From the NCBI GenBank assembly GCA_037903355.1, contig JBAJFE010000042.1:4104001-4168000 (forward strand): a DNA stretch of 64,000 nt, in the 5' to 3' direction. A program made the position numbers and the translations under genes. This DNA is from Trichuris trichiura (Eukaryota; Nematoda; Enoplea; Trichinellida; Trichuridae). Shown piece by piece: positions 1,312 through 59,028 of the stretch (position 1 is its first letter; the number at the start of each line of letters is the position of its first letter). The notes under the pieces are model-generated. The model was not told the DNA's origin. It was given only the letters and a program-made list of their open reading frames with translations, and did not search any database.

Positions 1312-2159
1312 GTAAGTGTTCCAAGGAGTAGTTCTGATAACGAAAAATTCCCATAATCGAGAATTTGTTCGTTTATCAGTTTTGCTTAGTCTACAACTAT
1401 TCTAAATTGCACTCCTTGAAGAGAGGCTCGTGCGTCAACCAGCTCAGTTGTAAATCCGGAGCTACCTTTTAGGCTTAGTCAGAAAAGAATTTATTCGTTG
1501 TCCCGATCAGTACACGATAAACGAACCAAGAATCAGAGAGAGAAAGACGCAGAATCTGGACACAACAGCAGTATCCACACCAACCCCCATCACCATCACT
1601 CCACCCTTTATATAGCTTTTCTCTGGTAAAAAATACCCGGTGTTTAACATACTTCTCTGTTTGTTACGACCTGCTCTAACTCTCGAAGTGTGAAACAGTA
1701 AAATCATCAGTCCGCTTGAACACGGCCAACCTCCGTGACCTGCCTCGTGACCGTCGTGGTCACATGAACACTTGTTTACCACTTCAGCTGCATTGAAAAT
1801 AAAGCTCCTTCTAACGGGTGTGTGAATTAACATAATGGTGGTACGGACAAGCTACCCTTTAATCATTTATTTGGCGAAGCGTTGGGGAAACGCCGGTTCC
1901 CGTCTTCAGCGCATGAAAAATGGCAGAGCGAATTTTGATATAGCACTAGTCAGACCAAGTACTTTAAAACGCAGGAGTGTTGAGTGGTTTTTAAGCGAGT
2001 TACAACATTAAAAAGGGTGAGTGGTTGGTAGGAAAGTTAAGAGTAACAGAAAGCATGGGGAAGTGGGGTGTGTTTTTTTGGGGAGACTTTGACGGCTAAG
2101 TCACTGGCACTGCGCTGTGCAGCTGGCGACCCGCCTGCGCTTTCGCCTTTGACTTACTG
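1312..2159. other. No gene recognised; one repeat scar
   Basis: No supported coding sequence. On the minus strand at 1889-1910 there is GCTGAAGACGGGAAC, the 5' half of the dispersed motif described for the Penelope-related repeats, but the second half (CCGAAA) is not clear. Confidence 0.3.
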
Positions 2160-2630
2160 CTCTGCGTACGGTGGGACCTCGATGTGTGCACTTTCATGAA
2201 TTGCTGCAGGCAGTCACTGTCAACGTCTACCGATCGCAGATCAAAGAATTATCACAAATATTGAGAGAAAAGCGACAGAAATATGTGCGTAATCAACTTC
2301 TCATTGTTCTGTTGAGCGACAGAGCGCGACTTCATGTCGCTTCAGCGACGGAAAGCATTGTTCACCAGCGGGGCTGGAAGGAATTGATATGTAGCGCATT
2401 CGTCGAGCCTTGCCTCATCAGATTATTACCTCTTCCGGTCCGTAAAGCGTGCCATATCAGGGCAGCACTTCAAACAATCCGAGGACGTCAAAAAATGATG
2501 GTTCGGTTTTTTGGTTAAAAACTCGGATCTCTTACCGCGATAGGATTCATTCTTTGCCAGAGCATTGATAGAAGGTTGTTGAGTGCAATGGAAACCACAT
2601 TTAATAATCAATGTTCTTACAATTTGGATT
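2160..2630 (+). pseudogene. Mariner (Tc1/mariner) transposase C-terminal relic
   Basis: Cut-and-paste transposases of the mariner group carry a DDE/DDD catalytic core. Here the C-terminal half can be read: a segment resembling VHFELL..VTVN..VYRSQ, then KRQKYVRNQ, then LLSDRARLHVA, which aligns to the second catalytic Asp segment (HDNARPHVA) with Asn replaced. After a frameshift near 2400 the frame continues as SSDYYLFRSVKRAISG and EDVKKWFGF, the usual mariner end. The N-terminal DNA-binding part and first Asp are missing, and no terminal repeats are apparent. It is a dead fragment. Confidence 0.75.
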
Positions 2631-3490
2631 TATGAGTACTTGAAGTTGACGAATCAACAATAAGAACTTTTCTTCACACCTAATACCTCCGTCCGAGTCC
2701 GCGGTGTCCGGTTGATTGAGATGCTTTGCTTGATGAATTGGGGGTACAAAATCGGAAGAAATGTGAGGAACAAATGGCATTGAACGAAGACAGATGAATG
2801 AGCAATAAGCCAGCTTGAGTAAACCAAGAGAAGGATCCAGAGTATGAACCCATGGCAGCGCATCAGTAAGGGCGAACAAAGCGGAATCAACCAACGGTAA
2901 TGAACCCACGGTAGCAGGTTAGCGAATACGGATACGCGAACGTCCGTGAATAAGCAGGCGACAAACTGACGTCGTTGAACCTAGAGCAATAAGCCAACGG
3001 CGCTGAGCCTCATTAGTGAGTAAACGCACGCCCACAGAAACACCCTAAAATTGAGACAGAGTAAGCGAACTACGGTGGTAAAACACTGCCGGACGGCGGA
3101 CTGCTGTTGAACTAATGGCAATAATGGGTCAATGACATTGAAATTTTTGATGAAGTGAACTACTGTAAGCATGGAAAATGATGCCTGCGGATATGTTGGC
3201 ATATAAGCAGGCAGCTGGCAAAATGTCACGTGGAGTCGGCGAAACGTCATGTTCCAGCTTTAAACATTGAACACATTAAAACACTCAACAGGAAGTTGCC
3301 ACTTCTAGCAAATGTTATTAAGTCACTTTGAAATTTTCTAAATGCCACGTAGAGAAGCCCATATCCAATCAAAACGCACTAATGACCAAAGAATAAAATA
3401 AACTTAAAGTTGATTTAGTGGGTGGCAATTCCGCCTTCTTAGGTTCATTATCGAGTCGATCATCCATCTTCCCAGTTTACTTCGCTATTG
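2631..3490. other. No gene recognised
   Basis: Antisense open frames occur at 2601-2909 and 2981-3250, but they overlap the mariner tail or have no exon signals or family resemblance. Nothing else supported. Confidence 0.3.
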
Positions 3491-3518
3491 AATGGGCCAT
3501 TTTTTTCGACAGGTGGTG

Positions 3519-5995: not shown

Positions 5996-6049
5996 ATCTT
6001 CTTGCATGCCAACGTTTTGCATGAAAGCTGAACAAAATTTGTCTTATAG

Positions 6050-9067: not shown

Positions 9068-9312
9068 GGGTCTTTCCTAATAGTGGCTCGCCACGGCAAC
9101 TTCAAAGGAGGGCAAGTGGAACTAAAAGAACAATGCCGGCTATTTTGTCCCGCCCCAGTCTAAGCCTAAGCCTAAACATAACGGAATTACTCGGCAGGTA
9201 TTCCGCGGGTCAATAACCGGGTCAATCGCGCCTCACTACGCAGTAGCGTCGCGCATTGCCCTTTGATATTGCCGCCTGCCGGCAGTGGCGCGCCACTAAA
9301 AGGAAAGACCCT
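9068..9312. mobile_element. Short inverted-repeat element (MITE), about 245 bp
   Basis: The left end GGGTCTTTCCTAATAGTGGC and the right end, GTGGCGCGCCACTAAAAGGA then AAGACCC, are near reverse complements over about 27 bp. The interior is non-coding. No unambiguous target duplication is visible, so the superfamily is open. Confidence 0.6.
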
Positions 9313-9328
9313 TCTTCATTTTTTGACC

Positions 9329-9907
9329 TTTTTTTCTTGCTAACAGGTGCGTTATTCAGAATGAAAGTTTTTTGCGGCCTTGCAACCCGTTCGTTAAATT
9401 AACGTTTATTTCTAAGCGTCAAATCACGGAGCTTTCGCGCCTCAACAGGGCCCGTCATCAGCGCTATGTGTGCCACCCATCGGGTCGGTCATTATGTTAG
9501 CAAGACGCTCCATCTGACCGACATTGGCGGAGACCTCAGCCGTCAGGTCTACCTTGACCCATCGGGCCTTGGTCCCACCATGTCAGTCAGACTTTGCAGC
9601 GAGCACCCAACCGACCTTCCACGTCAGCGGCAGCACTAACAATGAGCAACAACAAGACAACAAACGAAATTCGCTCGTCTGTTTTAAACAAACGGGTTTT
9701 AAACTGACATCTTTCCCGTGTCTTTACTTTCTTCCTTCTGCGCTTTTCGTTGTCTCCTCTGCTGTCCGTGCCCGCAAACACATACTGATTTAACTTTTTT
9801 ATTTTATTTTTCTTTCTAAAGAAATAAACGTTAATTTAGCGAACGGGTTGCGAAGCGGCAAAAAATTTTCATTCTGAATAACTCACCTGTTAGCAAGGAA
9901 GAAAGAA
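9329..9907. repeat. Foldback element with about 85-bp arms
   Basis: The left arm (about 9329-9412) includes TTGCTAACAGGTGCGTTATT, CAGAATGAAAGTTTTTTGCG and CGTTAAATTAACGTTTATTT. It is repeated in reverse complement at about 9819-9907. The 400-bp centre is non-coding as far as I can tell. It directly abuts the MITE to its left and carries a hammerhead-like motif just inside the left arm. Confidence 0.75.
9433..9461 (-). ncRNA. Hammerhead-like motif (uncertain)
   Basis: The minus strand reads CTGATGA at 9461-9455, then CGGGCC, then GCGCGAAAGCTCCG ending about 9426. The GAAAGCTCCG tail matches the tail of the motif beside the Penelope element. The helix between the two core strands pairs poorly, so this is a decayed copy at best. 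Confidence 0.35.
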
Positions 9908-9953
9908 AAAGAAAAAAAATTAAATCAATATGTGTTTGTGTTTCTTAAAATCA

Positions 9954-10443
9954 ACTGCTCAATGTTTGGGCGAAAGAACGACACATTTCATCCTTACTGG
10001 TTACTATGAGCTAACGTATCGTGTTACGCTTGTCTATCTGATGCAGCAAAGGCTGAAAATTCACAGCTCTTGAAGTTCGTTGAGAACGCTGCGTGACCTC
10101 TATCGATGATAGCCGTAAGCTCAATCGACGAAGGCTGCACGCTCAGTCGGTGGGCGCTCCTTCACTTGTAAGTTTGCGCAATGGCTGTTGAAGTTTGATG
10201 ATAACGCTGCGTGACCTTTATCGAGGATGACTAAAAGCTCGGTTCTGAGCAGGCGCACAGTTCTCATCGATTCAGCTAAAAGTTATCATCGATATAGGTT
10301 ACGCTGCGTTCTCAATGAACTTCGAGAGTTGTGAATTCTCATCGTTTGCCGCATCAGATAGACAAGCGTAACGCGACATGTTAGCTAATAATAACCAGTG
10401 AGGATGAAGTGTGTCGTTCTTTCGCTGAAACATTTAACAGTTA
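9954..10443. repeat. Foldback element with about 145-bp arms
   Basis: The left arm runs from AACTGCTCAATGTTTGGGCG through AAGAACGACACATTTCATCC, TTGTCTATCTGATGCAGCAA and CACAGCTCTTGAAGTTCGTT to about 10105. The right arm is its reverse complement, from about 10295 to 10443, ending GCTGAAACATTTAACAGTT. The spacer is about 190 bp. RNA or single-stranded DNA from this locus would form a long hairpin. There is no coding capacity. Confidence 0.8.
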
Positions 10444-15628: not shown

Positions 15629-15691
15629 TGCATCTTCTATCCATCAGTGCACTGTAGCGGAATCAGTCATGAGTTCTATTTCCTTCATCCT

Positions 15692-15940: not shown

Positions 15941-16021
15941 CCGTTCGTCGCAGATGGGCTCATCCCACCGTGACGTTGCACGGTTGGCTTCTCTCTTGAC
16001 GAATGCAGTGGCTATTCGTAG

Positions 16022-19936: not shown

Positions 19937-19941
19937 GTAAG

Positions 19942-23202: not shown

Positions 23203-24645
23203 CACAATATTCCACTACGGACTATCGATTGGTCACTCTAGTGACCAGCTCGCTACTTGCAGCTCGCTGTAGCAGTGTACCATTGCAAGGCTATTGTAAG
23301 TGTCTGTAGTCTTTGTAAAATAACAAAACATCATTCTAATTAAATGTGCGCCGCTGTCAAACCTATCGCAAAGCGGAACATCTTAGGTAAGGAGCCTCCG
23401 GTATACCTGCCGGCAACGTGTGCAACCCTTAACGTGGAGCCAAGAATTGTGCCAGTGCTCTTGCAATGCCGAGCTCCCCACTTTTTAAAGTAAACTGCAA
23501 CAGAATAGCTGCCAGCACGCGTTAGAAAAGTAAAACATTATTATTATTATTTTCTTTTTTTTTGGGGGAATCCTCGATATATTTCAAATGAACTTAATTG
23601 TACTCCTGGGCTACTGTACATGTGGAGCTGATAGGAAAAATAATCCATTCACTGTATCTGTGTGCTGCTGCAGATAAAATCCTGCATAACAGCTCGAAGA
23701 AAATTATTATTCTGAATTCTGGGGACAGTCAGTCATTACACCTGTAATCACTAAACAAAAATCATTTCACTTGATGTTTGGGCATCTCTTAGCAAAAGTG
23801 ATGTACTCAGAGTGCGAAAGTTACAATGACATTTCGAAAATTGTCCATCCTGTCATTCTTGCCGAGACTAAAAATGAAAATAAGTGGCTCGTCAGTTCTT
23901 AATTGCAGCAACAAAGTTAAGGCGGTCAGCCATGGATTTTTTTAATTTAAGGTAAAAAAAATAGGGCTTGTGAGAGAATTTACGAATACACATCAATCTC
24001 ACTGAAATTTCCTATACCCACAGCGTATCAAACCTTCAACTTCCTTGGGGTTCTTTTATCATGAGCTAAGATACATTGAATTGTTCTCACTGGTTTTAGG
24101 AGCCTGTAATCATACATTTTACTTTTTATTTATTTTTTGTGCATGTTTAGAAGTTGGTTGGATTAATTACGTAAATGAGTTACTTACATTCAGGTACATA
24201 CTGTGATTTATTGTAAGGTATTGCATGCAATCGTCTGGTGACCGGTAGGTTGGCGGTTCTGTTTGAATTCACCGACAGATCTTTCTTTTATTACGTCGTT
24301 TTAGTGAGGTTCGCTGTCAGTATTCGGTACGATTGACAGATTTTCTCCATTCCTACTGTAACATTGTTGAGTTGTTGTCTGCTGATGAGGTAAAGTTGGT
24401 TGATTTTAGCTTAGTCAAGACTTTCATAAGTGATGAGAATTCATTCTTTGTCATTTCATACAGGCTCGGCCTGTTAAAGGGCACATTGTTTTATTATAAG
24501 TTATGATAAACACCTTCGAAGCTGTATGCAGCTTCCACAGTTTATGTTGTCATTTTAGTGCTCGCAATTATTTGTTTCGCTGAAGACCAGGCAGGAACGC
24601 CTCGAATGCTTCGAACACGTTTATCGTGGTTTCTAATAAAATATC
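23203..24645. other. Non-coding, upstream region of BPTF
   Basis: No supported coding sequence. AT-rich runs occur, such as the ATT repeat near 23539-23551. It presumably holds the promoter and 5' UTR of the BPTF gene, but I can name no specific element. Confidence 0.35.
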
Positions 24646-27600: not shown

Positions 27601-30600
27601 CCTTTACTGTCCACGGTTCTACTGCCAATCATATCAAAAAATATTGGCGTCTCGTCCATATTGCCGATGTTGCCCTATGGAAACTCATCCCCGCTTGTCA
27701 GATCTTTGACATGCCTGGAAATACAATTTCTTTAGATAGGACATTCCCGCTCAGTTTTCACACTGCTTTGTAGGGCATGTTTTTTGTTTTCCGAAATTAA
27801 ACCGAATCAACTTCTTACCAACGGATGGCTAAGCACTTGTTTAAAAAGGCGTAGAAGGGAAACACTAATTCTTGAATATGTAGATGTTTTCCCCTATTTC
27901 CATAATAAGTCCATTCGTTGGTAAAGCGCGGTTTAGTTTAATTTCAGAAAACGAAAAAGGAACAGTAAAAAGTCATGTACGGGTCAGTGTGCAAACTGAC
28001 CATACATTGTATGCAAGAATAAAAAAAATTTTTTAGCGAGTGAAAATCATACTGCTTTTAGATTATTTACGCTAAGGTGAAAGCTTTGAGGATCTAGTTT
28101 TTCCTAACGGTCTCACACGACGGTGTTGGTCGTTTCTTCTGTCATATTATTTAAAGTCGCCTCTGGTGTCCTTATGATCAGTGTCCAATTTTCCTTGCCG
28201 TATTGCCTAAACAAATGAATATTCTATATTCGCAGCAAACGTATATTTAACTTTCAAGAGACTGTGGAAAATTTGGTGATCTTCTGTGCTGCACAACTTG
28301 CTCTGCTGTGTACCATTTGCGTTGTCTTCCGGAAGGGATGAAAATTGACAACCCTTCTACTTGGCGGTGTTCCATATGCCTAAAGCACGAGGTAATAAGT
28401 TATGACTCGTGTTTTCAGTTCTAATGTATGGTTCGTAGCTACCCGGTGTTACAGATTGTTTGTTTCCATGGGAGGCAGCAGGAGTGTACGTTCAGGCGGA
28501 GCCATGGGGATATGACAATCATGGCCGTCGCTTTTGGTTTATTGCTCGCCGCTTGTTTGTGTAATGCTTTAAGGCAAAACTGCCCTATTCCTAATAGACA
28601 TTGCTTTAGTGAGGATGACGCACGTGGAATTGTTTCTTATTACAGTACTTTAGAACAGTTCTACGACTTAGTTAAGTGCTTCCAAGGGGGGACGCCAGAA
28701 GAAGAGCTGTGTTACCAGTTTTTGGAATTCTTTGATGTCATTGAATATCAGCTAATCCTTAATGAAGTGCTGACTAAGAAAGCTAAAGATAACGTCACCT
28801 CATGGTTTGAATTGAATGTTGAAAACAAAGTTAGCGATACTAAATGCACCAACGGACAAACCGCAGGTAAAAAAGGAAAGTGTTGTCGCAAACTGTTGGA
28901 AGCGGTCGAGCGTGCGTTGGAAAAAAAGCAACAACGAATAATGGGTAAGTCTGTTCTTCTTTTTTTCTTGTGGCAGTTTCGCTTTGCAGACCTGTGTGCC
29001 AAGGAAGTCAAGAAGAGTAAGATCTTTCCAATCGGACCGTTGAAGTCGACCGATTTTTCAGATTCTGTTGAGGATCCTGAGTTCGCTTTGATGCCCTCAC
29101 TTAGCCTTGTTGATAGTGGGTTGAATATGGAAACAGACTTCTATTGTTCCTTGGGTTCTGCTTTCAAGCTTGGCATGGAAGGAACTTTTATGGCAAGAGT
29201 CAAGTTTCAGTTTCTTATGAGCATGCCTGTTGCTTCAGAGTTATACCAACCATTATTTGGAAGATCCCTATGCCAAGTCACCTTATCAGCGCGCGGAGGA
29301 GCATCGGAAGTACAAGTACATAAGTGAAAAGTTTCACGTCGACGAAGAAGGACAATTTAAGGTGAAACTTTATGCTACGTCCTTTAGCGCATTCATTACT
29401 GTTCTGTAGAGTTGTTTTATTTTGTAAAAGTCTTACCCTGTTCATGAAAGATTAATTCAAATTGAAGGAAAATTATTAATGAATGAATGGAGGGATAGTT
29501 GTCAATTATCTGAAAGGGCGATCACTGTACTACCTGCTGTTGAAAACTGGGATTTTCGGACAAGTGCATCTTTTCCGAACGATTGTTCTTCTTTGCGTCG
29601 CTCAGGCACTTTTTTCAACTGCAGTTCCGTAAACGAGCGTTAATCGTTTGATTCCTCAAACTGGGGCTGATCTCTTTGTTAAAAGCTTTTATTTTTCAGT
29701 CTTCGTTTTAATTGCCTGCTGATAGGGACTTTTCAATCTTCTATTCGTAGCGGGTATTGGATGAAATTTTCTTTCTTTTTTGCGGAGAATGAACCAGTTG
29801 TCAGGACAACTTATAATGTCCAAAGAAGTTCTTCAGCGAAGGTTTTCGATGACCGGTCATCAGCACAACGTTGGCACTCACTGGGTAGCTATTACTGTTG
29901 CAAGCTCCTCGATCCGATCAACTTTGGCAGGTACATCAGCTGTCAGCTCTGATCTCGACTCGTCGAGCGTCCGTCAAGCCTCGTCATTCAGGCGGTAGAG
30001 CAAGCGAGCGAGTGCCCAACTCGCATTTTAACTTTTAATTTATCCTCTATGCATGACGGGTATAGGATAAATTGGGCGCTACCGATGGGGAACAAGGAGT
30101 AGGATGGATCAAAGAATGATGCTGAAGTGAAACTGAAGGTCGCTTAAAAACTGACGAGTATTATGTTTGCGTGCTCATTGTTTCTTAAATGTTGTAATGT
30201 CACTACTGTGGTCGGTTGAAAGAACGTTCACTCTACCGCGTGAATGACAAAGCTGGGCGGACGCTCAGTGGCTCACGATTGGAACTGACAGTTGATGTTC
30301 CTGTCAGAGTTGGTCAGTCGGAAGAGCTTACGAACAGTAAGACCAGTCCACTGAGTGACAATGTTGCGCTGATGACGGGTCATGGTTCGACCTGAAATTT
30401 TCCCTGAAAATTTTTTTTTGGAAATTAAACTTTGTTTTGAGAACGGATTTATTCACCAGAACACCACAAAAAAAGTATAAAGAATTCCGCAAGTTTAGCG
30501 AAGATCGATGCAATGGTTTTTGTTACGCCGGTTTTCCTGTTTCCCCTTGACGATGTTTTCGCTATCTCGTCTTATGTTGCCAGAAGCTGCCTATCCTTCT

Positions 30601-33600
30601 AATTACTGAGTTTCATCTTAATGATAAAATTTAACAATACACAGTTTCCGTTATTAAATGACTGCACTAAGTCTTGGGAACTACAAAGTTGGTTATCTGA
30701 AGTAAAGGTTGGATGTTTCAGAAATGGAGATAAGATAATATAATGCCATTGCGAAATCGTTGCTATCAAGAATCCGTTTTCTTTGCATAGAAGTTACATG
30801 GTGCCATATAATTTTACTTCTTCCAGTCGGTAAAATTTTTCATTCTTACAAAGTGTTAGCAGAATTTTCGCCACGCTTCCCTGTTTCAATTCCGGCACAC
30901 TAGCAGTGGGATTGTGTTTCATTCAGCTTTCTCTGTGCTTGCTTGTTTTCAGTGGTTGCTGTTTGTTTTCGCAATCATGTATCTTACGATGGCCAACTAC
31001 ATTTCGAAAACTTAAGTAGCTGCTGCCTTATGTTGTGGGCAGAATGATTTTCCCAGTGGCATTTCCCTTTCCGGCTTTAACGGCGGTAATAACTTTCATT
31101 GTCTACAGCTTAGAGCGTAGCGATATTATTCACGGCAGTATACTGCTGCAATTTTCAAGTTCATCAGTATGATAGTTTGGCGGTTTTAGTTCTTTCAGCT
31201 TGGTTTTTAACTTCCATTTACAGCAGATAGGCATTTATTTTTTTTACCCTTGCAGTAATGGCTTTTCAAAGTTCCGAAAGTTTGGGAGAATTGTTTCAAT
31301 AAAAACTGTTCAACAATCCCAGCTTCCGTAGCAGTTTGTCAACATGAAAATGTACATCACCATTATCAAAAGCCTTGTTTTCAAAAGCATGAAACGTTGA
31401 ACAACGCATTTTTCGGCATTTCGTGTTTTGTTACTGTTTTATGCATTTAAGGTGTGAATGATATCAATGCAGGCAAGATTCGTAATAGGGAATGGGAGTC
31501 TCTTCAGTATTTGCACAATGGCAGTAGTGTTGAATATTGTTTTCTAAAGTCAGTGAACGTTTAATAGAAAGGGCTTTTACTATGCGACGAAGGATAAAAA
31601 CTACGAAGTTTATGGGCCCTTTTCGTCCGTTTTCCAGCGAACGAATTTGTGGCGTATCACTACTAGCCCAGCGATAGTATTGATGAAGTTTAAACAATAT
31701 TTTGTTTACTTTCTGTAGCGCTAGTGCAACCCAGCGCCGTTTGGTCGCGTGCATGCCAAAATCAGATGCGTATACGTGGAAAGTCTAAGGCGCGTATTCA
31801 AATACGAGTACCTTTTACGTTACGGGCCAATGAACTTTTCTCCTTAACTGACGCTGAACTGACCGCTGTCGAATATCTAGGGCGCAGCGCAGTCCTCAGC
31901 ATTTTAGGTACCCCTGAGAGTCTTCTGGCGTCCTCTTGAAAGCTGCTCATTGAGACGGAAGAGTTTGAATCCCTTGTGTTTTGCAGCAACTGGTTTGGTG
32001 AATTATGTGAGTTGAGGTTGTGCTCACTAACGCTCTATTGTCTTTATCCATACAGCTATTGTTTCTCTTTAGGTAATGGCTTTCTTTGCATATCTCTACC
32101 GCAGTGCGGTCTCGTTTGCATATATTCACATGCCTCACTAACCTAGGGCTTATGCGTAGGTTCAGATTTATTTTTTCGTTGTTTAAACCTTTTGATCATT
32201 TTGTTGTTTTTATTCCACGAGTTTGTTCTCCGCTCTCGTCCGCTTTTTATACCAGACAAGCGTAAAAGTTTTATTACGGAAGTATTCCCGTTTAATGTTC
32301 TAAATAACTCCGGAGCTTTCGGGTCGACCGAGACCCGTCTTCAGCGGTTGTGAATTACGGATGTAACTTGAGTCTTCTGTCGTTTTCATGGTTTAAAGCG
32401 GGTGTTTTAAAGCTCTTTGTTGGTGGTCTTCTGTTTGTATGATATGTAATTTGTCCGTTTTTTCGCATTTTTTCATGTGCGGGGATTATTTCTTCTTTCT
32501 CTTGCTCCATGTGTTCTTGTATCATGTCCAATTATGGAGCAGCAGTCGTAGCGCGTCACTATATTTGTCCAAATTTCACTTACATCTGCTCCTTGGTCGC
32601 GGTTATATGTGAGGTTGTGTCTTATGTAAAGGGCTTCTTTGATTCTTCTTAATCGTAGGTTCTTTTCATAACATAAGACTTTTGGGTTGAGCGTCTGGTT
32701 ACATTCTGTGGCATGTTCTGCCACAGCAGAGGCTTGTTTGGCTTTGTGTAGTTCCATTGCCACTGCTATTGAGCATGGCCTTCGCATTGTTGTAACTTGC
32801 AAGCTTTTTTAAGTGTTCATTAAATCTATGTTCTAAAGTGTTCCCTGTTTCGCCAATATAAATTCCTGAGCAAGAGCATTCCACTGCGTATACTAATCCT
32901 GTTTTCTTGTTTGTTGGGATTTTTGTTTTGTCCGAGCGAAGAATTGATCTAAGGTTAGGGGAGCTCTTGAAGAAAACTCTGAAACCTAATGTTCTTCCTA
33001 GCCGGGTAATTTTTTCTCCTAAGCTAGCCACATAGGGAATAACTAAGCAAGGCTGGTGCGAAGCGTTTTCTGCACTAGGTTCACGTTTGCGAAGCTTGTA
33101 GTTGAATACTTGGTTAATAAAGGACCTGGGATATCCGTTCTTGTAGAAAATTTTTCGAATGTGGTTGAAGTCTGGTTGAAGATATTCAGGACTGCATAAT
33201 TTGATTGCTCGGTCAATCATTCCGGAGAGGATACCTCGCATTACTGATCTGGGGTGATGTGATGAAAAGTTGAGATACTGATCCGTGTGCGTGGGTTTTC
33301 TATATACTCTGGCTTTTAGCCCATCGTTTGGGCGAATAATTAAAGCGTCTAGAAAGGGTAGGGTGTTGTTGTCTTCTTTTTCCATTGTGAAAACGATTTG
33401 GTTCGGGCGGATGTTGTTGAGGAATTGTAAAAATTGCTCTTTCTTTCCAGCTTTAATAATTACGAATATGTCGTCTACGTACCTTTTGAAAAGGCGTGGA
33501 GCTATGTATCTGTCTACTGTTGCGAACATTTGTCTTTCAAAGCTTTCCATAAAAGTTTCTGCTAATACTGGAGATAAGGGGCTGCCCATAGGTACTCCGC

Positions 33601-36600
33601 TAGACTGTTTGTAGTACTTGTTATCAAAAGTGAAATGATTGCCTTCTTCCATGCAAAAGGAAACCAATTTGACAATGTGAAAGGGATTTAGTTTAGTTCT
33701 GGTGGGTAGACTTGTGTCTGCATTGAGGAGATTGTATAGGATCTCAAGTGTATCTGATATGGGGATGCTCGGGAATAGTTCTTTTACGTCATAACTAACC
33801 AGAATCTCATCTGGTTCTAGGTAGTGACTCCGGATTTCGTTGACAAAAGTTTTGCTATTTTTGATAAAGGACGGCTCTTTGCCAGTAAGCGGTTTGATGA
33901 TCGTTCCTAAGTATCGACCGAGTTCACTTGTGATACTATTAATGGTGGAGACTATTGGTCTCATTGGAATCCCTGGTTTGTGTACTTTTGGGAGACCATA
34001 GAGCTCAGGGGGTCTGAAGTTCGATGCAAACTTAAGATGTGTTATCATTTTGCTGATTTCAGGTTCTTTGGCCTCAGCGGCATATGTGATGAGGAGAGAT
34101 CGAAGATTTTTCCGGGAAGCCTCTGTAGGGTCAGTGGGTAAAGGGACATAATTGTTGGTGCTTAAGATAGCTGTCATTTTTTCAATGTAAGTCTTTCTGT
34201 CTAGTAGAACTATTTTATTCCCTTTATCGGGTTTAGTGATAATTCTGTTCGGTTGATTTCGAAGCTCATGTAGGCAGTTCATCTCATGTCGACTTAAGTT
34301 AGGAGTGGCGTTGAAGCGGTGATTTAAGATTAATGTAGATAAAGTGCTTTTAATATGTCCGGCTCTTTGTGGGTCTGTCGAAGATAAACTGTCTTCAATT
34401 GAGGTAATGATATCGAGAATGGGTGGTCGTTTAGGGGTGGGAACGAAGTTCAGTCCCTTTTTTAGTATGGCCTTCTTATTTTCACTTATAGAGGAGGAGC
34501 TGAGGTTTACTGTTGTTGTATTTAGTTCCGACTCAGTGGTCCTTTGTAAGCTATTGCTGTAGACATTTAGAGAAGTCACCGGGAAACTCGCCTGAAGTCT
34601 ATCGAATTTCCTTTTTAATACCTATTTTTGTGTCGTGCAAGCTGTTCCTGCGGCCACATCCACATGCCTGACCAAGGCTTCGTAAATTGCTCTCTGTAGT
34701 TGGTTTCTGAGGTAACTGAGTGTGTTGTTGTAGTTTGCTGTCAATTTCGCTAGTGTAAATCTCTGTTGTCTTATAACGTTTTGAGCAGAGATAATCCAGC
34801 GGAAAATAGGATTCGTTTTGAGTGACTATCCACGTTCTGGCCCCATTTTAGTTGAAAGCACTTCGGTAGAATTCTGTGGTCTCTGCATTTCAGTAAGAAG
34901 GTCAGTTGGCTTTGAGTAAGACCCGCTTTAATACGTGTATGCTCCAAATATCTGGCCGCTGACAGGAAGGATGTTCCGTATACACCCTGTATAGTCTTGA
35001 AAATGTTGTTTCTTGGTACGGGAGCGTATGTTTTCATGATGTAAAAGTTTTATTACGGAAGTATTCCCGTTTAATGTTCTAAATAACTCCGGAGTTCTGT
35101 TTAATGTTCTAAATAGCTCCCCAACACTGCTGACGACGGAACACGAGCAGTTCCGAAACGTAAGGGATAGAATTGTTCTGTAATTTCTCTAACAATTTGC
35201 TCATCCATTCGTTGGTAGGGCATTTTGAAGTTTACTTACAGATACATCCAACATCCCAAACCCGTGAACCAGAGAAACAACTATGTTTTGTCTTTAAGGA
35301 AATGCGTTTCACATGTTCTGGTCTTTCTTTGTTCAGTTTTTTTTTGTAGCGTTTTCCCTTAGTTTATTACTACCAATTCAGTTAGGCAACTACGTTGCGC
35401 TGCACCTTTTAACAACTGGCCTGTCAACAGAGATTCCTGTACTTCGTTTCTCCTATCGTTATCTTCATTTTTCTCCACCCTCTGTTTTCTTCTCACCTGC
35501 AACAATATTCTTCATTTCATAGTCGTTTTTTGATGAACAGTAGCAGTAGCATCATCTCAACTTTACCTATTCTTTACAGTAATGCCTTCTTTTATCGTTT
35601 ATCCTGCACGTTAGTTGCACGCGCGGAGCATGTCTAAGTTAAAGACAAAATGTTTGGTAACGGGATGATGGGTGTTACTTATTAATCTTTCGATGTCTCC
35701 CCATTCTTTGCTAACTGTATTTGTAACAACCAAAACTAGAGCCTTTTGTTGGTAGTACGTTTGTCGTTTTTACAGATGCAATTACAGAATATGGGGAAAC
35801 GCCGCGGAAAAATTAATAATGAACATGTCTGAGTTAGCATAATAGCCGGATTAGTGAAGTTCAATCTTAATAAGAAAATGCTATTTTTCTTGTAACTTTT
35901 GCCTGATACTGAAGTAGCTGAGCTCTGCATAGGCCAACATAACCGACTCGAGCCTTTGTGGAAAATAGTGTCTTCTTTTTTCTCGTCAGGCAGCAGCTTT
36001 CCTATTAATAGTATTCATTAACAATATAGGAATGGCAGGGACACTAGGATTGGAGCATATCCTTTACGGGTGTTTTACCTGCTCGCGTTTCGTACTACTT
36101 TTCCTAGTAAGTTTTGGCATCTGTCTCTGTTAGACTTTTTCTGCCTGATTATATATACATTGGACGAGAACTTAGCTGTAAGATGCAAATGAATTCATTT
36201 CACTTCGTTGCAAATAATCCCATTTTAATAGAACGGAAGTAGAATACCTTGAAGTGGTTTGTTTACTATAGTAAAATGATTGGCGGTCTTGGAAACCCGC
36301 AAGACAAAATTTGTTTCATTTTGAATTAAAGTGCGTTGTAGCGTAAGTGTTTCATCGCGAAGCTGATGAACTTCATTCGGAATGAAAGAACTTTGAAAAT
36401 CACTTGATCTACTATCCCTTTATGACTTTGTGATCCAAGTAAATGCCTATTCAATGGTCGATTGAATGTGACGCATTTTTTAATGAACCTGTTCAAATGT
36501 GTGATGTTTTCAGTGGCCTTGCGGTTTCTCTCGGTCAGAGGGCAGCATTATTCTTATGCTACGACAAAGTTTGCACGATCTCTGCTTACGCTTTCCAGAA

Positions 36601-39600
36601 ACGTTGATGCATCCACTATGGTGGAGGGAGCAGAGAGCTGATTGGTTAAAAACTCTGGATAACGCTGAACGTCTGGAAACTCTAATCAATCACCTGGCAC
36701 GATTTGAACTGCTCGTGCGACCTTCTACGCTGGTGGAAGTATGGTACCAAGGCTTGGGTTATTCGCGCCTCTGGCGTCAGACTGCCGCTGATAGAGAGGA
36801 GCGCAACAATCAGAAAGCGAGAGCCCGAGAGCAACAAGCTCTTGACGAACCCAACGAAAATGCCGTTTTTGCAAAGTATACCGTGCTGAATGGTGCACCA
36901 AAGCATCAAATCTGGAAGCTCAAGCATGAGCAGTATCGTATCTCTGGCGATGGACATTTAGGAGGGTGGATTTGGATTAGACGGCAACCGCATATTAACT
37001 CTGTTTCCTGCTTGTCTCATGTATTTTGTGGAAACATTATCCGAAGCTCACCACACAGTTTGACTGTTAATCAGTTAATCATGGATTTTAGTCTAGGTGA
37101 CTTTAATACTGTGTAATAATGTTAATAATGTCTTCAAACCTTCAATTTCAGGACTTCGCTGCCCACCCAAGCGAGAACAGGGCCAATTAAATTTACAGGT
37201 TCCCGAAGTCGATTTTTTGGCTGGTGCACAGCTACCAGTTGAATTTGATTCTTTGCTTGAACACAGTGCAGTTCAGCCAATAGAGTCTTCTATATTTGTG
37301 AACTTAGGTCTCCACTCACCTTTGGTCAATGTTAGCGATGGCATTCGTGTTCATTCTGTTTATTTTAAAAAAGCGAAAGAATGCTGGCTGTTAGATTCTC
37401 TGTTGAACACGCTGGAGTGTAAGCGAGAAGTGTCGCCGTTTGTTGCAGTGCAACGCGGTATTTGTGATAGCCGTGCCTCTTGCTATACCATTAGCTGCAG
37501 AGTTTTTGGCAAGTATGCCTGTTATAGCCCTTCTTGTATTGAAAACTTCGCCGGAAGTCGTTTTCATCTTCTTGGCTTTGGTGGACGCAAGAGAGTGGAA
37601 GTAGAGCAGCCGCAATCAAATGTTTCTTCGGTTTTCCCCCCTGAACCAGTCCATTTAATGTACAAGTGTTGTGAAGAAGAAAATCCGAACATATTGAACG
37701 TGTCGCAGAATGTTTTAACGCGCCTCGCTCGTCGTGGTCCCGATGACGAGTTGGATGGTTTCAATTGCAGCGGTAGCAGCTCTGGTTGCGTGCCTTCACT
37801 CTTTCAGGCATCTATATTTTAGCAAAAGCTGGTTGGAACTGGTTATATCCATCTCCTAGGCCTACTGTGCAAACATGTTGGCGGTTGGCAACTCAGCGAA
37901 CTCTGAGTTTGCATTCTGTAGCCTTTCTGTTTAGGAGTTTTTACATGTCCATCAGGTAATTAGTCACTCGTCCATACTTTTTAGTTTCTAACGTTAATAA
38001 CTAAGGTGGAAAGAAGTACTAGTGAAAATGCCGCTGCAAACCAAGCATGTGCTAAGATCTGAAACCTACAATGAATCTCGCGAAATCATACAACATAAAG
38101 ATCTCCCACCCTTTGGTCTCTGCTGTGTATATATGACACGTTATCACAGGCTCGCGGATGACTTACGAAGTGTGAACTTCTTGAGTTCCTCGGAGCTGGA
38201 TGATGACGATTTCATATCCCCTGAATACGCACCTGGTAAGTATGATTTCGTCATCGTGCAATTAATCATTTTACAGCTCTTGCTACTAATGTCTGAAATA
38301 TCTTTGATTTTCATGTGTAAGACAAAATGAACGTATGAATGCTGAGCTTTTGAAATAGGGTTGTTACTCTTTTAGAAATGTGGTACGTCTAACAGAAGCG
38401 TTCTTGATGTTCCACGTTTTTATTTGAAGTATGCGCTTTAAGGAGGAGCGAGTTTCCGTAGTTTTTTGGCTGTCTTCCATTTTCACGGGAAATTAGAATT
38501 TTTATCAGCATTATGGTCAGTATATTGACTTTCCTAAGATCTTTTTGAAAATTTTTTTTACGGTTTCAACCCATTGTGTTTTCACATAACGTTTATTTCT
38601 GTCATAAACGTTGTACAAAACCATTAGTTTTTCATCTCAAGTAATTGTGCGACTTGTGAAGTAGTGGTATGAGAAGCGGCACTCATCTATAATAGGGAAC
38701 TTTAATTAACGGCGAACATGGTCTAACGAGTAGTGAGTTTTGGTAACGGTAGCAGTCCAAGTCGTTGAAATAGTACAAAAACGGAACTTTGAGGATTCTC
38801 TCGTTTTATTTTCTGCATATTACGACGCGAAATTCGTCTTTGTTGTGAAGATCTTTAAATATACACGCCCCGTAGCTTTCGCGCCAATATAAAATTTGAT
38901 CTTGTGGGTATGGCGGTGTGTTTGTGCAACTGTCTTTGTTTTGTACAGTCAAGCTAGCGCAGGAACAAGGTGGAGCATAATATAATTAAGAAAAACCTGA
39001 CCAATGAAAACTTATTGTGCGAAACTTTCGCGAAGCCTCTGTTCCCGTCTTCAGCGCAAGTATAATAGCAAAGAGCATTTCTGCATTTTCACGGGTCGAA
39101 TTTTCCTTAGTTACGTTATGCACTTCTACCTGCCCGTAAGGCAGAGCCTCATTTTCAATGGAACAAGCTGGCAACAAAACCACGAATGTATGCAACTATC
39201 TATGCTAACAATTTATAGCTTAGCAATGGGGCAAGTTTTTCTTTTTTACTTAGATAAGCTAATGTTTTAGTGTACCTTAAGGGATTAGTTAGGATCATAA
39301 TCTACCCAGAATAGATTCTAGCACTAAATAATGCTTTAAAGTTCATTTAGCCTGAATAGAATGAAAGCGGTTTACGGAAATTTCCTACTCTACTATGAAG
39401 TCAGTTTTTTTCATTGTGGAGCTGTGAAAACCATTTACTGACAGTGGCTGTTGATTTTAGAATGATTTCCGTCGAAAATTAACACCTACGTCTAAGCGCG
39501 AAATTCATTTGCTTTCTACGCAGGCAGCATAGAGGCAATTTTATAAAATTATTTTGGTGGAATCCTTCACGTGTGACGTTAAATCTGCGCTCGAGTTAAG

Positions 39601-48190: not shown

Positions 48191-48965
48191 CAATGCCAGA
48201 GCACAACGTCATTACAGACCGCGTAACGTTGGTTTTGGCAGAAAGCGTAGCAGGATTCAAACTAAAGCCCTTCCTGAATCCTATACCTTTGAAAAAATTC
48301 AATAAGAATAGGCTTTCTGTTTTTTATCTCCATAAAAAGAAAGCTTGGCTGACACTAGCGCTTAATTGGAGACCAGTTTTTGTACTATTTTGTCCCAGAG
48401 ATGAGAGATTGTTGCATGCAAAAGAACGTGCGGTTCAGGATTCGTTTGATGACGTTAAAGAATGCAGCAGCACATCCCTGATACATTAGTGGCATGGATC
48501 CTGACACAAAGGTTGCTAATTTGCCGCCAAACATGACTGCACTTACTCATTCAATTGACTGGGGGGCAATAGCCACTTTCAAAGCATATTACTAACTGCT
48601 GACTTTTGATTCCCTTCTAGTGCGACTAGATCTGGCTGGGTACTCCATAAGCTTTGGAAAGATTTTAGTACTGTAAATGCTATTCACATGCCGATGCTGC
48701 ATGAAAAAAGTCATAGAGCACTGTATGAAAGGCATTTGGAGGAAGGTTTTGAAAACACTGGTGAACGCGTTCAAAAATTTTAACAAACCCTCCGCAGCTC
48801 ATGAAATGGTGAGCGATAAGCTGGTGACACAGAGAACTCCTGAGCAGGTGATCTTGGTGCCTGCCAAGAACTGTTATATGCGCTGAAAACTGCCAGAAGG
48901 GCGGGACTGAAAGCTTCGCAGAAATGTTGTGGTGCTAAAGAACAGGATTTCATTAATAAAGAAAA
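48191..48965 (+). pseudogene. Tigger/pogo-type transposase relic
   Basis: The plus strand reads DRVTLVLAESVAGFKLKPFL and VFYLHKKKAWLT, then the catalytic-region phrase NLPPNMTALTHSIDWGAIAT followed by FKAYY, and a C-terminal LWKDFSTVNAIHM, with several stops and shifts. These are Tigger DDE motifs, with the normal QPLDQG changed to HSIDWG. No terminal repeats seen. Confidence 0.75.
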
Positions 48966-48989: not shown

Positions 48990-49500
48990 TTACGGTTTTA
49001 ACCCGTTCACCCGTAAGTCGTTGCTCCGTCGCCGTAAGTCGGTTGGGAGCTCGCTCTGACGTCTGAATGACTAGGTGGGGCCAAAGCTCGATGGCTCACG
49101 ATAGAGCTGACAGCTGCGGCTCTGGCCGAAGTTGGCCAGATAGAAGCGCTTGCAACCAGGAAGAGCAGCCCGACGGTGGACACTGTTTACGCTGAAGACG
49201 GTTCATGGCACGACCCGAAAGCTTCGTGTAGAGCGTTTATTAACTTCAATTAACGTTCTTCATAACTTCTTTATAAGGTATGTTCTCTTGCCCGTTGATG
49301 GAGTCTGGAATTAAACCGAAGCAAATGTCCTACCAACGGATGGATGAGCAATTATTAAGGAAAAATTCAGAACAATCACTTAACAGATTCGTAGCTTTCA
49401 AGACTAACCTTGTCCCGTCGTCAGCGATGGTGGTAATGTCTAGTCGTCAGCAACATGGTAGAAATAATGGTAATGCCCAGTCGTCAGCGACATGGTAATG
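48990..49500 (+). repeat. Dispersed repeat, copy 2, with two hammerhead-like motifs
   Basis: 49035-49226 resembles 30215-30400 and ends GCTGAAGACGGTTCATGGCA followed by CGACCCGAAAGCTTCG (CTGAAGA 49192-49198, GAAA 49217-49220). About 50 bp further on, the sequence matches one arm of the 58.7-kb palindrome (CCTACCAACGGATGGATGAG), ending in an inverted motif at 49424-49396 on the minus strand (CTGACGACGGGACAAGG then CTTGAAAGCTACG). A short duplication of GTCGTCAGC.ATGGTA-type words follows to 49497. Confidence 0.5.
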
Positions 49501-55230: not shown

Positions 55231-57585
55231 CCGTAATGTTGTACGCTTATTCTTGCAAGCTTTTGTACAAGTCAAGCAGCCATTTGAGCAACGCTGATGT
55301 ACTAAGCCATTTGTTCTGGTCTTACAAAATTATGAATTCGCAGGTTTTTCAGAAATAAGCGAGAAACTCTGAATTTGGCTTAACTGCGTGATTTCAGAAT
55401 TATCTCGCCTTTTTCTTGTTATTCGCACGACGCGATGCATCATACGGGTCTTCATCCTCCTTCCACTTCGCGTTGAGCGAACTGAGGAGCTAAACAACGC
55501 GTTGATTTTTCCTTCCCAGCAATGCTACGACGTTTGCCTTCATTTCAGTCTACTGTGATACTGCCCAGTGTAATCAATGGATGTTCATTCATAAAGTTTC
55601 CATAAATTTCAAGATTTGAATGTATGTTACGGTAAGAAATCATACAAATTATAAAGTAGTTAGCATGCGCATTTATACTATGCGTTAATGAAAAGCCCGA
55701 TCGTATCTGTTTCGATATTTCATGGCTACTTGGCTCGTTTACGTTTTCAAAGTTTCAACACATCCCAGAAAAGCTTTCTAGCACATTCACTGGAACAACC
55801 AGGTTAATCAAACCCGCACTATTAAAAAGACCGTTGTCAGTATGGTTGAAGTGACCGCAAGTCGATACTATAAGCTGCCTGTTCATCAACGGGCAAAGAG
55901 TATACTGCTATGGAATTGCGAGGACTAACAAAGGTTCTGCAGAGTTGCGCAGAAAATGCACAAGCCTTCCATCAAAGTAAAACAGTCAGGATTTTCAATT
56001 TTAGTGCCAGTTAGCGGGTTTTATATAGAACGACAAGCTTGAGGTCGCCTATCCTTTGTCGTTACCTCGAAGGCAAGACTTATTACTCCCTGAATCAAAA
56101 CAGCAGCGGTAACGCGCAATGAGATTTGTTCCGGAGCCTGATATCAGTCCCATGGCTGAGAACAACAGGAGAATGTACATATGTGTCGTACGGAATGAGT
56201 AGTGTTAGTAGACAAAGTAAAAAAATATTTTCATATGGATAGTGTAGTAGGATGTAAGGCTAGGCCATTTCGACCATTAAAACTTTCTATTTCCCTTTAA
56301 CTACCACTTTATCGCCAAGTATAGCTGTCGTAATGAATCATTCTGTTTTCCTGCTACCATGTTACATAGCAGCTTTGGCAGATAACACAAATTCATTTTG
56401 CAGAGAACCAATTGCATGCACAGCTCTGGATAGGTCAGTAGTAGAAAGCAAATGATCGTTCATTGTTGTTCTATTTAGATTTTGAGACTACCACAGTCGG
56501 TGAGTTTCAGTCCAAAGTTTTAAGTATTTCATTAAAGATTTGTAAGGTAATCATCTCCAGATAGTAGTGATTTCTTTCTTAGTATTCATACTAATATTGA
56601 TTCCTCTGCAAAGAAAATGGGCGAGTATTATTCCTTTAGAAAGTAAAACAGCCTGTCTGACAACTTTCAGAATTGAGAAGTATTGAAAGAAAGGTAGACA
56701 CGTTAAAAAGAATACCTTTAGTTCGTTTGTAAGGGTAACGAAACGTAAAAAAACTTTAAAATAAGCCATAATTATGCCAGCAATTCAGATTTATTGACGT
56801 ATCTCAGTTGTATTGAAGGCATTACGCAGACGTAAAGTTTGGTTTAACCAAAATTTCCAAAATGCTATTCGCTTCAAATAGCCCAGGTATTCATTGAAAA
56901 CCTCACTTTTGGAACTGGTTGGTTGGCGTGTTCATGCATAGTCCTTACCAACTGTTCGCCTAAATGCGCTAACGGAGTAACAAGTAAATGCTGGGTTTTC
57001 AAGATTTTCCTGTTTCGCCCTCAGTAGCTCTTCCTCTTCAGAACACAAAAATTGAGATTAACCGTAGCTTATAAATTTATTAAATCAAAACCAGAAAAAT
57101 CAACAGTAGGAAATAATGATTTATCTACAAATCACGTTTATGTTAAAATTTTTCGTTGTACTTTCAGTAAACTGGCACGCCTGTGACGTGTTGATCCCTG
57201 GCAGAAGAACTTACTCCACTTGTCAGAATTCGAGAAACGCTAACTAGACGTGAATCAGTTACAAAGAAATTAAAAGATTCTTCATATGCTGAGAACCAAT
57301 TCAATTAATGGTGCGGGTCAAAATTTGAGATAATCGTCTTGCCTTATTAAACTATAGTCCACTTTCAAAAATTTTCCGGTGAGAGACTTTTTTTATTGCT
57401 TGCACTGAATAAGCTAGTAGAAGATCCTACGGCGAAAAGAATCAATAATTCTTTGTTCAAGCTATCGGCAACGCAGCTACATAATGGCAGCAAATGTACG
57501 CAAGAAATTTCCTCACAGTGTTCAGTTTATTCAATTAACTCAGTTGTAATTGAAAACTAATGACTTTTCAACGCTGTTTTGGAAT
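55231..57585. other. No gene recognised
   Basis: AT-rich, short open frames only. No supported feature. Confidence 0.35.
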
Positions 57586-58225
57586 TTCATGTATGTATTT
57601 ATTACGGAAAAGGTACAAAGCATTTATTTTGTAAATGTAACTTCTTGGTACGGGACTGTGAATTTTCATGTTAAACTATTTCTTATACGGAATGTATGCC
57701 CCGTTACTTTCTGTATAAGAAACAGTTTAACACGAAAGCATTTATTTGTACTTATGAAAACAAATTCTCAAAGCTTTCAAAGCTTTACAAGCTCTGCTGT
57801 TAGCGATAACAAGTACAAGTACAACAAGTACTTGTACTTGTTATCGCTAACAGGTAGGTTCCTTCTCTGTCTGTCAGCTATCAGAAGAAACCTCCAACAG
57901 AGTCCGTCTTTTACGTCTTCCCTGTCTGTCAGCTGTCAGAAGAAACCTCCAACAAAAACTTTAAAACATTCGTTTGAAACCGTTAAAAACGATTGAAGGT
58001 TGACATCGGTTCGCAAATTACATTCATTTTATGACCGCTGAAGACGGTTCACAATTGATCCGGAAGCTCCGGAGATTAAAGGTTATTGTACATATAACGG
58101 GAAATTCACTCCGTAATGAAGACGCTTCATTATGAAAACTTATAGTCCCGTACCAAGACATCATATCTTCAAAAATAAACATTTTGTAGCTTTTCCATGG
58201 TAAATACATACATGAAACTCAGTTT
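57586..58225. repeat. Foldback element with internal palindrome
   Basis: The left arm (57586-57670: TTTCATGTATGTATTTATTA to CTTGGTACGGGACTGTGAAT) is repeated in reverse complement at about 58128-58220 with some divergence. A second, shorter inverted pair (TTAAACTATTTCTTATACGG / CTGTATAAGAAACAGTTTAA) lies at 57672-57732. The right half carries a decayed GCTGAAGACGGTTC..CCGGAAGC motif at 58036-58068. Confidence 0.65.
57797..57853. repeat. Perfect 26-bp inverted repeat with 5-nt loop
   Basis: CTGTTAGCGATAACAAGTAC then AAGTAC, loop AACAA, and the exact complement ending TTATCGCTAACAG. Followed by two direct copies of CTGTCTGTCAGCT.TCAGAA plus GAAACCTCCAACA (57868-57902, 57923-57957). Confidence 0.85.
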
Positions 58226-58693
58226 ATTCACTTAAAAAGCAACATTAACTGTGGAGGCACCATGAAGTAGTTAGTTACCTGGCATTGTAACAGGAAACGA
58301 GTTTGGCTGCTTGGCAAGAAATCGTGTAGATAAAGTGGGTCTTCAGGTGCTGGCCTCTTGCACTAGTGAAGGTATCATAGAAAGACGCTGACTGAGAGCC
58401 GTGGATGGAAACTGAAAGTGCAGCTAGAAGTGAAAACTTCTAGCGGTAAATTTACCATAAGCTAGACTGATCAATTGAATCGCAGGACAAGGCAGCTGGC
58501 AAGGGGAACAAGTAGGATCGCTATAAAAATGCTGAGTGGCAAACAGAACGGTTATCAGGAAAAAATGGTTTATGCGGTTGTCACTCTTGCGGCACATCTT
58601 GTTCGATATCATAAAATTGTTTATGTACTACTCAGCGAGTTTAATTTGCAGAACCTGATGTTCGTATCACCTCTCTTGACCGCCCCATCTCAA

Positions 58694-59028
58694 TTTCATA
58701 GTCGGTCTTCTGGTTCACGGATTTGGCCTGTTTAATGTATCTGTAAGTAAACTTCAAAGTGCCCTACCAACGAATGAATAAACAGACTGTTAGAGAAAAT
58801 ACAGAACAATTTGTGTACCGTACGTTTTGGAACTGTTCTTGTTCCGTCGTCAGCAGTGTAAGGGAGGAACTGACGACAGAACAAGAGCAGTTCCGAAACG
58901 TACGGTATACAAATTGTTCTGCATTTTCTCTAACAATCTGCTCACCATTCATTGTTAGGGCACTTTGAAGTTTACTTCCAGATACATCAAACAGGCCAAA
59001 CCCGTGAACCAGAAGACCAACTATGAAA
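58694..59028. repeat. Long palindrome, arms about 165 bp
   Basis: From TTTCATAGTCGGTCTTCTGG to GAAGACCAACTATGAAA, centred near 58861. The arms are nearly identical. Each contains a hammerhead-like motif close to the centre (CTGACGA 58870-58876, GAAA 58895-58898 on the plus strand; the left arm reads CTGACGACGGAAC..GTTCC then AAAACGTAC on the minus strand). Half-copies occur at 35116-35285 and about 49280-49430. Confidence 0.85.

What the first reader, a model, noticed from the sequence alone, without database searches (positions are those of the whole stretch)
1889..58898. One motif, CTGANGACGG..CCGAAA, recurs at about nine places in unrelated contexts
Seen, with varying decay: near 1.9 kb (-), 9.43-9.46 (-), 30.37-30.40 (+), 32.32-32.34 (-), 35.13-35.16 (+), 39.02-39.06 (-), 49.19-49.22 (+), 49.40-49.42 (-), 58.04-58.07 (+) and twice in the 58.7-59.0 palindrome. 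It sits in foldbacks, palindromes, a SINE-like repeat and beside a Penelope repeat. Inference: a small mobile RNA module spread by Penelope-type machinery, comparable to retrozyme-like non-autonomous elements.
Basis: partly seen in the sequence, partly recalled or inferred. Interest (0 to 1): 0.75.

Follow-up and report, generated by a model that had tools for sequence, protein, structure and literature searches.

The report
Penelope retrotransposon hammerhead ribozymes in whipworm
The recurring motif is a tiny RNA-cutting RNA (a hammerhead ribozyme, with one extra letter that may hold it switched off) carried in the ends of Penelope-type jumping genes and their small non-coding passengers, of which this whipworm genome holds thousands.

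Summary
The motif is real and not chance. It is a minimal type I hammerhead ribozyme (HHR): the core is conserved position by position, helices I and II covary, stem III is a palindrome (AGCU or ACGU), and the base before the cut is almost never G. A model trained without window copies finds all eleven reported copies plus two more at E<0.002. The pattern occurs 3,553 times in the 72.7-Mb genome against 2 for its reverse. The host is Trichuris trichiura or a near relative.

The 'unrelated contexts' are mostly pseudo-LTRs of several Penelope-like element (PLE) lineages and a 475-bp non-coding passenger. Insertions with and without the PLE ORF share one anatomy: two head-to-head arms, one ending nearer and one farther past its ribozyme, inside a 12-16-bp target duplication (19 of 19 insertions with such a duplication).

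PLE-type HHRs are known. What stands out is a nearly invariant extra C after core A9, predicted to pair with the catalytic G12; in a viroid HHR a C there was strongly detrimental. It could be a brake. Catalysis and circular RNA are untested.

The parts
32309..32352 (-). hammerhead ribozyme in the 3' pseudo-LTR of the PLE
   Evidence: R1 61.7 bits, E 5e-16
32699..34621 (-). PLE ORF (stop to stop): reverse transcriptase and GIY-YIG endonuclease
   Evidence: Pfam RVT_1 7e-10, GIY-YIG 4e-5; best relatives Trichuris; 70 matches in the genome, a lower bound
32262..32315 (-). PLE tail after the ribozyme; identical piece upstream of the ORF at 35041-35094
   Evidence: repeat D2, context
35122..35166 (+). 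hammerhead ribozyme of PLE family 2, head-to-head with the PLE
   Evidence: E 3e-9
9425..9469 (-). hammerhead ribozyme of a family-1 (passenger) copy
   Evidence: E 2.5e-8
9312..9917 (-). two-armed family-1 (475-bp unit) insertion, about 78% identical to the unit of L071; no target duplication found
   Evidence: BLAST, inverted repeat I4
30368..30402 (+). decayed hammerhead, family 1 related
   Evidence: E 8e-6; family by BLAST
29835..29871 (-). doubtful decayed hammerhead facing the one at 30368
   Evidence: E 0.17
49184..49228 (+). hammerhead, family 1 related
   Evidence: E 4e-10; family
49388..49432 (-). hammerhead, family 2
   Evidence: E 8e-12; family
58030..58073 (+). hammerhead with PLE-type tail ending near 58174
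   Evidence: E 7e-11; sequence
58817..58861 (-). hammerhead, left arm of the family-2 palindrome
   Evidence: E 1e-9
58870..58902 (+). hammerhead, right arm of the family-2 palindrome
   Evidence: E 0.0018
58694..59067 (.). family-2 two-armed insertion; left arm ends at tail position 159, right end near 197-199 judged from other copies
   Evidence: no target duplication found
39018..39062 (-). decayed hammerhead
   Evidence: E 1e-8
1873..1917 (-). decayed hammerhead
   Evidence: E 2e-6
24572..24615 (+). decayed hammerhead not in the finding
   Evidence: E 4e-5
48875..48920 (+). decayed hammerhead not in the finding
   Evidence: E 6e-4

Best explanation
[quoted passage not shown] Anatomy, 5' to 3': helix I strand (usually ACCG), CUGANGA, an extra C, a 5-bp helix II with a loop of 6-7 nt, GAA, the self-complementary AGCU or ACGU, the cut site, the helix I partner, then a tail that ends about 80-216 nt from the start of the core and in most families examined holds the start of a PLE-like ORF. 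How it moves: the PLE protein binds the tail (inferred from work on the Anolis PLE); both target strands are cut with a stagger of 12-16 bp (inferred from the duplications); each 3' end primes reverse transcription inside the tail, one at the nearer start site and the other 27-57 nt farther on; the two cDNAs meet head-to-head (arrangement shown, order of steps inferred). What the ribozyme does: it would cut between body and tail, probably as a dimer through the palindromic stem III (inferred). Because a cut there removes the priming site, I infer that it is normally held off, perhaps by the extra C pairing with G12, and acts after protein binding.
For: Core conservation in 80 distinct copies that were not pattern-selected: C3 .97, U4 1.0, G5 1.0, A6 .99, N7 free, G8 .92, A9 .99, G12 .97, A13 .99, A14 1.0, A15.1 .96, U16.1 .96, H17 not G in 79 of 80. 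Covariation on 24 copies: 28 cells changed on both sides against 8.1 in shuffles (0 of 500) and at most 5 when slid. PLE ORF with RT and GIY-YIG; R1 hits in 29 of 29 other PLE loci searched. Tails translate to MKTYAPVPRNHIF, MKTYGPVRRNHVF, MKQPKPVKRHPVF, MKTQPVTKHPVF. 19 of 19 two-armed insertions with a 12-16-bp duplication outside a microsatellite have one short and one long arm, 5 with and 14 without the PLE ORF. Passenger: 21 of 23 two-ended insertions short/long. The Anolis PLE cuts and extends both strands, starts inside the RNA at two sites, and its HHR cleaves only with protein (PMC11167929, main text).
Against: No catalysis or RNA data. No hammerhead family of Rfam matched the window up to E 10; the genome search with RF00008 gave nothing, but rang in no control either. 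The extra residue departs from the strict HHR consensus. The number of pairs changed on both sides was reached by 27 of 500 shuffles and the fourth pair of helix I holds in only 7 of 24 copies. R1 was trained on copies that all have the extra C, so its hits lean towards C. In vitro the Anolis PLE showed no difference of start site between strands. Two of 23 passenger insertions and 1 of 25 family-2 insertions break the short/long rule. The link of the 475-bp passenger's own tail to a PLE ORF start (MLNDTPVRR) is weak, and no autonomous partner was found (searches unanswered).
Confidence: 0.85

Rival explanations
1. Independent retrozyme: the module belongs to its own circular-RNA element, as in metazoan retrozymes, and PLEs merely share it.
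For: 475-bp ORF-less unit, tandem in L071; tandem 218-bp spacing in L010; passenger arms cluster near one unit, 32 of 57 at 425-640 nt and 3 above 665.
Against: Same minimal HHR and same kind of insertion ends as PLEs; the PLE loci searched carry the HHR; tandem units are also normal for PLEs (PMC11167929). Arm lengths are biased by selection for long matches.
Confidence: 0.1
2. DNA foldback or MITE elements that happen to contain the motif.
For: Many copies sit in head-to-head inverted repeats with target duplications.
Against: The arms end at different, family-specific points (19 of 19), are truncated at variable inner points, and in 5 cases have a PLE ORF between them.
Confidence: 0.02
3. 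Degenerate former ribozymes: the extra C inactivated the family, and the motif is kept only as part of the tail that the PLE enzyme binds.
For: C at this position was strongly detrimental in the viroid HHR (PMC3705267); predicted pairing with G12 in 77 of 91 copies with C and G.
Against: Residues needed only for catalysis (G5, A6, A9, G12, A13, A14, H17 not G) stay conserved across families whose helices have changed.
Confidence: 0.15

Closest known systems
Minimal type I HHRs of Penelope-like elements (Cervera and de la Pena 2014; Lunse et al. 2017; both known to me only as cited in papers read in part, and from recall)
   Same: Minimal HHR with diminished helix III, in pseudo-LTRs, thousands per genome, thought to act as dimers (PMC7761336, passages)
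   Different: Nearly invariant extra C after A9; whether those papers show it could not be checked
Penelope insertions of Anolis (PMC11167929, main text read) and Adineta (PMC3846280, passages read)
   Same: pLTR, adjacent inverted pLTR, 30-40-bp tail, pLTR includes the start of the ORF, AT-rich targets, unrelated sequence mobilised between pLTRs
   Different: There the tail is called optional; here each insertion with a clear duplication uses one near and one far end; duplications are 12-16 bp against 8-10 bp
Metazoan non-LTR retrozymes (PMC7229834, passages read)
   Same: Non-autonomous, HHR-bearing, small, sometimes tandem
   Different: Those have canonical HHRs with loop-loop contacts and shown circular RNA; here minimal PLE-type HHRs and PLE-type insertion ends
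Chrysanthemum chlorotic mottle viroid plus-strand HHR (PMC3705267, passages read)
   Same: One extra residue between A9 and 10.1
   Different: There it is A, and changing it to C or G was strongly detrimental; here the natural residue is C

Membership tests
Hammerhead ribozyme (type I) | Core C3 U4 G5 A6 N7 G8 A9 / G12 A13 A14 / A15.1-U16.1 / H17 | tested here: met
   80 distinct copies
Hammerhead ribozyme (type I) | Helices I and II supported by compensatory change | tested here: met
   outermost helix I pair weak
Hammerhead ribozyme (type I) | Helix II directly after A9 | tested here: not met
   one extra residue, C in 73 of 80; insertions of 1-2 nt there are known in HHR alignments (PMC10085705, passage)
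Hammerhead ribozyme (type I) | Rfam model match | tested here: not met
   none up to E 10 in the window; minimal forms score poorly
Hammerhead ribozyme (type I) | Self-cleavage | not testable with these tools
   needs RNA
Penelope-like element | RT plus GIY-YIG in one ORF | tested here: met
Penelope-like element | pLTR with HHR and ORF start, inverted pLTR and tail, target duplication | tested here: met
Retrozyme | Non-autonomous, no ORF, HHR | tested here: met
   475-bp unit
Retrozyme | Canonical HHR with stable helix III | tested here: not met
   stem III is AGCU or ACGU in 88 of 100 copies
Retrozyme | Circular RNA intermediate | not testable with these tools
   no RNA-seq at hand

The most novel reading that the evidence does not exclude
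PLE ribozymes of this genome (3,553 exact-pattern copies with the extra C) are built with their own brake: the C pairs with the catalytic G12 and keeps the template RNA whole until the PLE protein, bound to the tail, opens it. Reverse transcription then starts on the two target strands at two different sites of the tail, one per strand, and a non-coding 475-nt RNA rides on the same enzyme.
Probability: 0.25. Interest if true: 0.75.

Novelty: new variant of a known kind. Interest (0 to 1): 0.5.

Why it matters
The role of PLE ribozymes has been called a mystery (PMC7761336, passage read). A genome with thousands of copies, a core insertion that should harm catalysis, and many insertions with clean duplications makes two open questions testable: whether the PLE ribozyme is meant to stay off until protein binds, and whether each target strand is primed at its own start site. 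It also ties a retrozyme-like non-coding element to PLE enzymes through insertion ends and duplications; the review cited argued for that tie from the ribozymes and their co-occurrence.

Tried and rejected
Rejected: chance recurrence; Rfam matches such as mir-3913, which fit the palindrome and lie below their gathering scores; DNA foldback reading (unequal arms); a coding passenger (a reading frame open in L071 breaks early in L075, by eye). Led nowhere: helix I beyond 4 bp; a peak of passenger 5' ends at the cut site (alignment ends too fuzzy); target duplications for the window spans at 9.3-9.9, 29.7-30.5, 32.3-35.3 and 58.7-59.1 kb (a fifth span, 57.5-58.2 kb, has a 12-bp repeat but outside an outer foldback); looking for an autonomous partner of the passenger and counting copies with G12 changed (both unanswered). 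Cervera 2014 is not held; Lunse 2017 I did not look up by id and saw only as a citation, so the extra C may already be shown there. Library searches: Trichuris + hammerhead + Penelope 0 papers; Trichuris + Penelope + retrotransposon 1, by its title on telomerase; Trichuris + ribozyme 6, none by title on this. That covers only the open-licence library.

Full report
Observation. The eleven reported copies are present. Model R1, trained on 24 copies from other loci and none from the window, finds them all and two further decayed ones at E<0.002, plus a doubtful one at E=0.17. CTGANGA-N4-30-GAAA is three-fold over shuffles in the window (18 against 5.7). The full pattern occurs 3,553 times in the genome against 2 for its reverse, 49 per Mb.

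Host. The PLE ORF's best relatives are Trichuris muris and T. suis. A host ORF (window 6025-7704) is 95% identical to T. trichiura over 58% of its length and 64% to T. suis over 97%. The genome is T. trichiura or a near relative.

What the motif is. R1 found 148 copies at E<=0.001 in 332 kb of held sequence. Among 113 rows not selected by a pattern, 80 are distinct: the unpaired residues of the hammerhead core are conserved as expected and N7 is free. In 100 copies taken with a strict expression, helix I has at least 3 contiguous pairs in 84 (CCG/CGG, GCG/CGC, TCA/TGA, ACG/CGT, TCG/CGA among others), stem III is AGCT in 81 and ACGT in 7, and H17 is C 67, T 19, A 13, G 1. Helix II varies with compensation (GGGTC/GACCC, GGAAC/GTTCC, GGCTC/GAGCC, GGGCC/GGCCC). 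On 24 copies 89.8% of cells pair and 28 cells change on both sides against 8.1 in shuffles; 0 of 500 shuffles reach these or the covariation score, and slid versions are far lower. The number of pairs with a double change is reached by 27 of 500 shuffles, and the outermost helix I pair holds in 7 of 24. With a 2-bp self-complementary stem III such ribozymes are expected to act as dimers; that comes from work on PLE and newt hammerheads described in PMC6155905 and PMC7761336 (passages read) and is not shown here. No hammerhead family of Rfam matched the window up to E 10.

The extra C. One residue between A9 and helix II is present in all 80 copies (C 73, T 6, A 1); R1 was trained on copies that all have C, so this leans towards C. 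Pattern counts do not depend on R1: with C 3,553, with another base 366, by eye mostly T in the 100 places listed. A pattern with GG directly after A9 gave 45 matches, several of them a periodic non-HHR repeat and others C-to-G changes rather than losses. Nearest-neighbour folding, which ignores the tertiary core, pairs this C with G12 at P>0.5 in 77 of 91 distinct copies that have C and G. In the chrysanthemum viroid hammerhead an extra A sits there; A to C or G was strongly detrimental and A to U raised the rate (PMC3705267, passages read). The Anolis PLE's HHR cleaved only when the PLE protein was present (PMC11167929, main text read). From these I infer a brake; the inference is mine and untested. 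The C lies in a CpG, which may explain the excess of T.

Where it sits. Of 30 PLE loci (L033 is the window's own), 22 have the strict pattern; R1 hits all 29 that were given to it. After the HHR comes a tail: in the PLE family an ACGG..CCGT hairpin, AATAAA, then ATGAAAACATACGCTCCCGTACCAAGAAACCACATTTTCAA, the start of the PLE ORF, within or after which many copies stop. Other tails translate to MKQPKPVKRHPVF, MKTQPVTKHPVF, LKILKLVKKHAEF and, less clearly, MLNDTPVRR. So the apparently unrelated contexts are mostly pseudo-LTRs of several PLE lineages. BLAST grouping of 112 held copies gave families of 70, 15, 15, 3 and 2 copies and seven singletons, which stay unassigned; the sample is enriched for PLEs.

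The passenger. Family 1 is a 475-bp unit without PLE ORF. The genome search lists 127 pieces from 40 scored candidates of 458, which I joined into 41 insertions. Of 27 two-ended ones I dropped four with odd ends (C22 twice, C30 twice). Of the 23 left, 21 have one tail ending at 92-110 and the other at 143-160; the exceptions are 96/90 and 158/137 (P 3e-5 against equal chance). In 17 of these 21 the short-tail arm has the longer part upstream of its ribozyme (by eye; P 0.004; by whole arm 16 of 21). In family 2, 24 of 25 two-ended insertions pair a tail of 192-211 with one of 130-166; the exception is 197/199. One of the 24 is the window's own copy, whose right end is just the query's end, and the list is ranked by score, which favours long arms. 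L071 shows two full tandem units, three sense HHRs and one antisense.

Integration signature. Among 39 divergent HHR pairs in 26 loci, 20 loci have an exact direct repeat of 12 bp or more 75-240 nt outside the ribozymes. One lies in a microsatellite (L046) and is dropped. In all 19 others the two arms differ in length by 27-57 nt. Five have the PLE ORF between the arms (L038, L043, L048, L051, L057). Fourteen do not: family 1 L025, L028, L071, L075, L076; family 2 L001, L044; family 5 L014; PLE-type L003, L004, L017, L053, L063, L067. Unrelated stretches give 12 bp or more in 6 of 560 comparisons. Six of the 26 loci gave no repeat of that length; L074 has 10 bp with arms 106/151. Of five window spans tested, four gave none. 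The same arrangement and duplications in ORF-bearing and ORF-less elements are the main evidence that PLE enzymes move both.

Mechanism. Shown here: two arms, head-to-head, inside one duplication, with one near and one far end. Shown by others for the Anolis PLE: both strands cut and extended, reverse transcription starting inside the RNA at two sites that bound the 'tail', with no difference between strands in vitro. Inferred: in this lineage each strand uses its own site. Adineta Penelope has the same layout, with the tail called optional and on one of the inverted pLTRs, and unrelated sequence moved between pLTRs (PMC3846280, passages read); the layout is known, its strictness is what I add. 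The ribozyme lies between body and priming site, so cleavage of the 3' copy would destroy the template; Anolis PLE insertion did not need cleavage. A held-off ribozyme fits both.

Limits. No RNA, no catalysis, no second whipworm genome. No circle: of 57 passenger arms (34 of 41 insertions; seven with odd or partial ends left out) 32 are 425-640 nt and 3 exceed 665, which fits a monomer, a circle, or selection for long matches. The G12 count and the search for the passenger's autonomous partner did not complete. Cervera 2014 and Lunse 2017, the key papers on this HHR class, were not read.

Noticed in passing
window 63858-64000: 5' end of an 18S rRNA gene, cut by the window's end; the sequence beyond was fetched (L032) but not analysed.
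   Followed up: no
window 14273-22611: LTR-retrotransposon-like ORFs with reverse transcriptase, aspartyl protease and integrase domains on the minus strand.
   Followed up: no
window 10679-11158: ORF with a Brinker/Tc5-type DNA-binding domain, probably a pogo-like transposase fragment.
   Followed up: no
window 9953-10442: A 190-bp foldback (83% complementary arms) directly beside the family-1 insertion.
   Followed up: no
window 57522-58230: The PLE-type copy at 58.0 kb lies inside an outer foldback with a 12-bp direct repeat TCAGTTTATTCA on both sides.
   Followed up: partly
L028 780-1224(-): A PLE-type HHR is followed by the family-1 body and then a family-1 HHR, a chimera that suggests template switching.
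   Followed up: no
L010, L023, L046, L062: Tails abut (ATT)n microsatellites, in line with the ATT cleavage preference of the Anolis PLE.
   Followed up: no
HHR loop II: Third loop position is G in 34 of 39 distinct stem-loops and 75 of 79 copies although the rest of the loop varies; a possible tertiary contact.
   Followed up: no
G000 contig C61, 26-103 kb: A sequence near CTGAAGAGGAGTGAAGGTGAAACGCCCGAAA recurs every 7.4-8.2 kb; possibly a long tandem gene array, not an HHR.
   Followed up: no
window 35086-35130: The PLE's upstream pLTR piece begins near its HHR cut side (CTCCGGAG) and abuts a family-2 HHR head-to-head, as if two different RNAs had formed one insertion; no duplication found.
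   Followed up: partly
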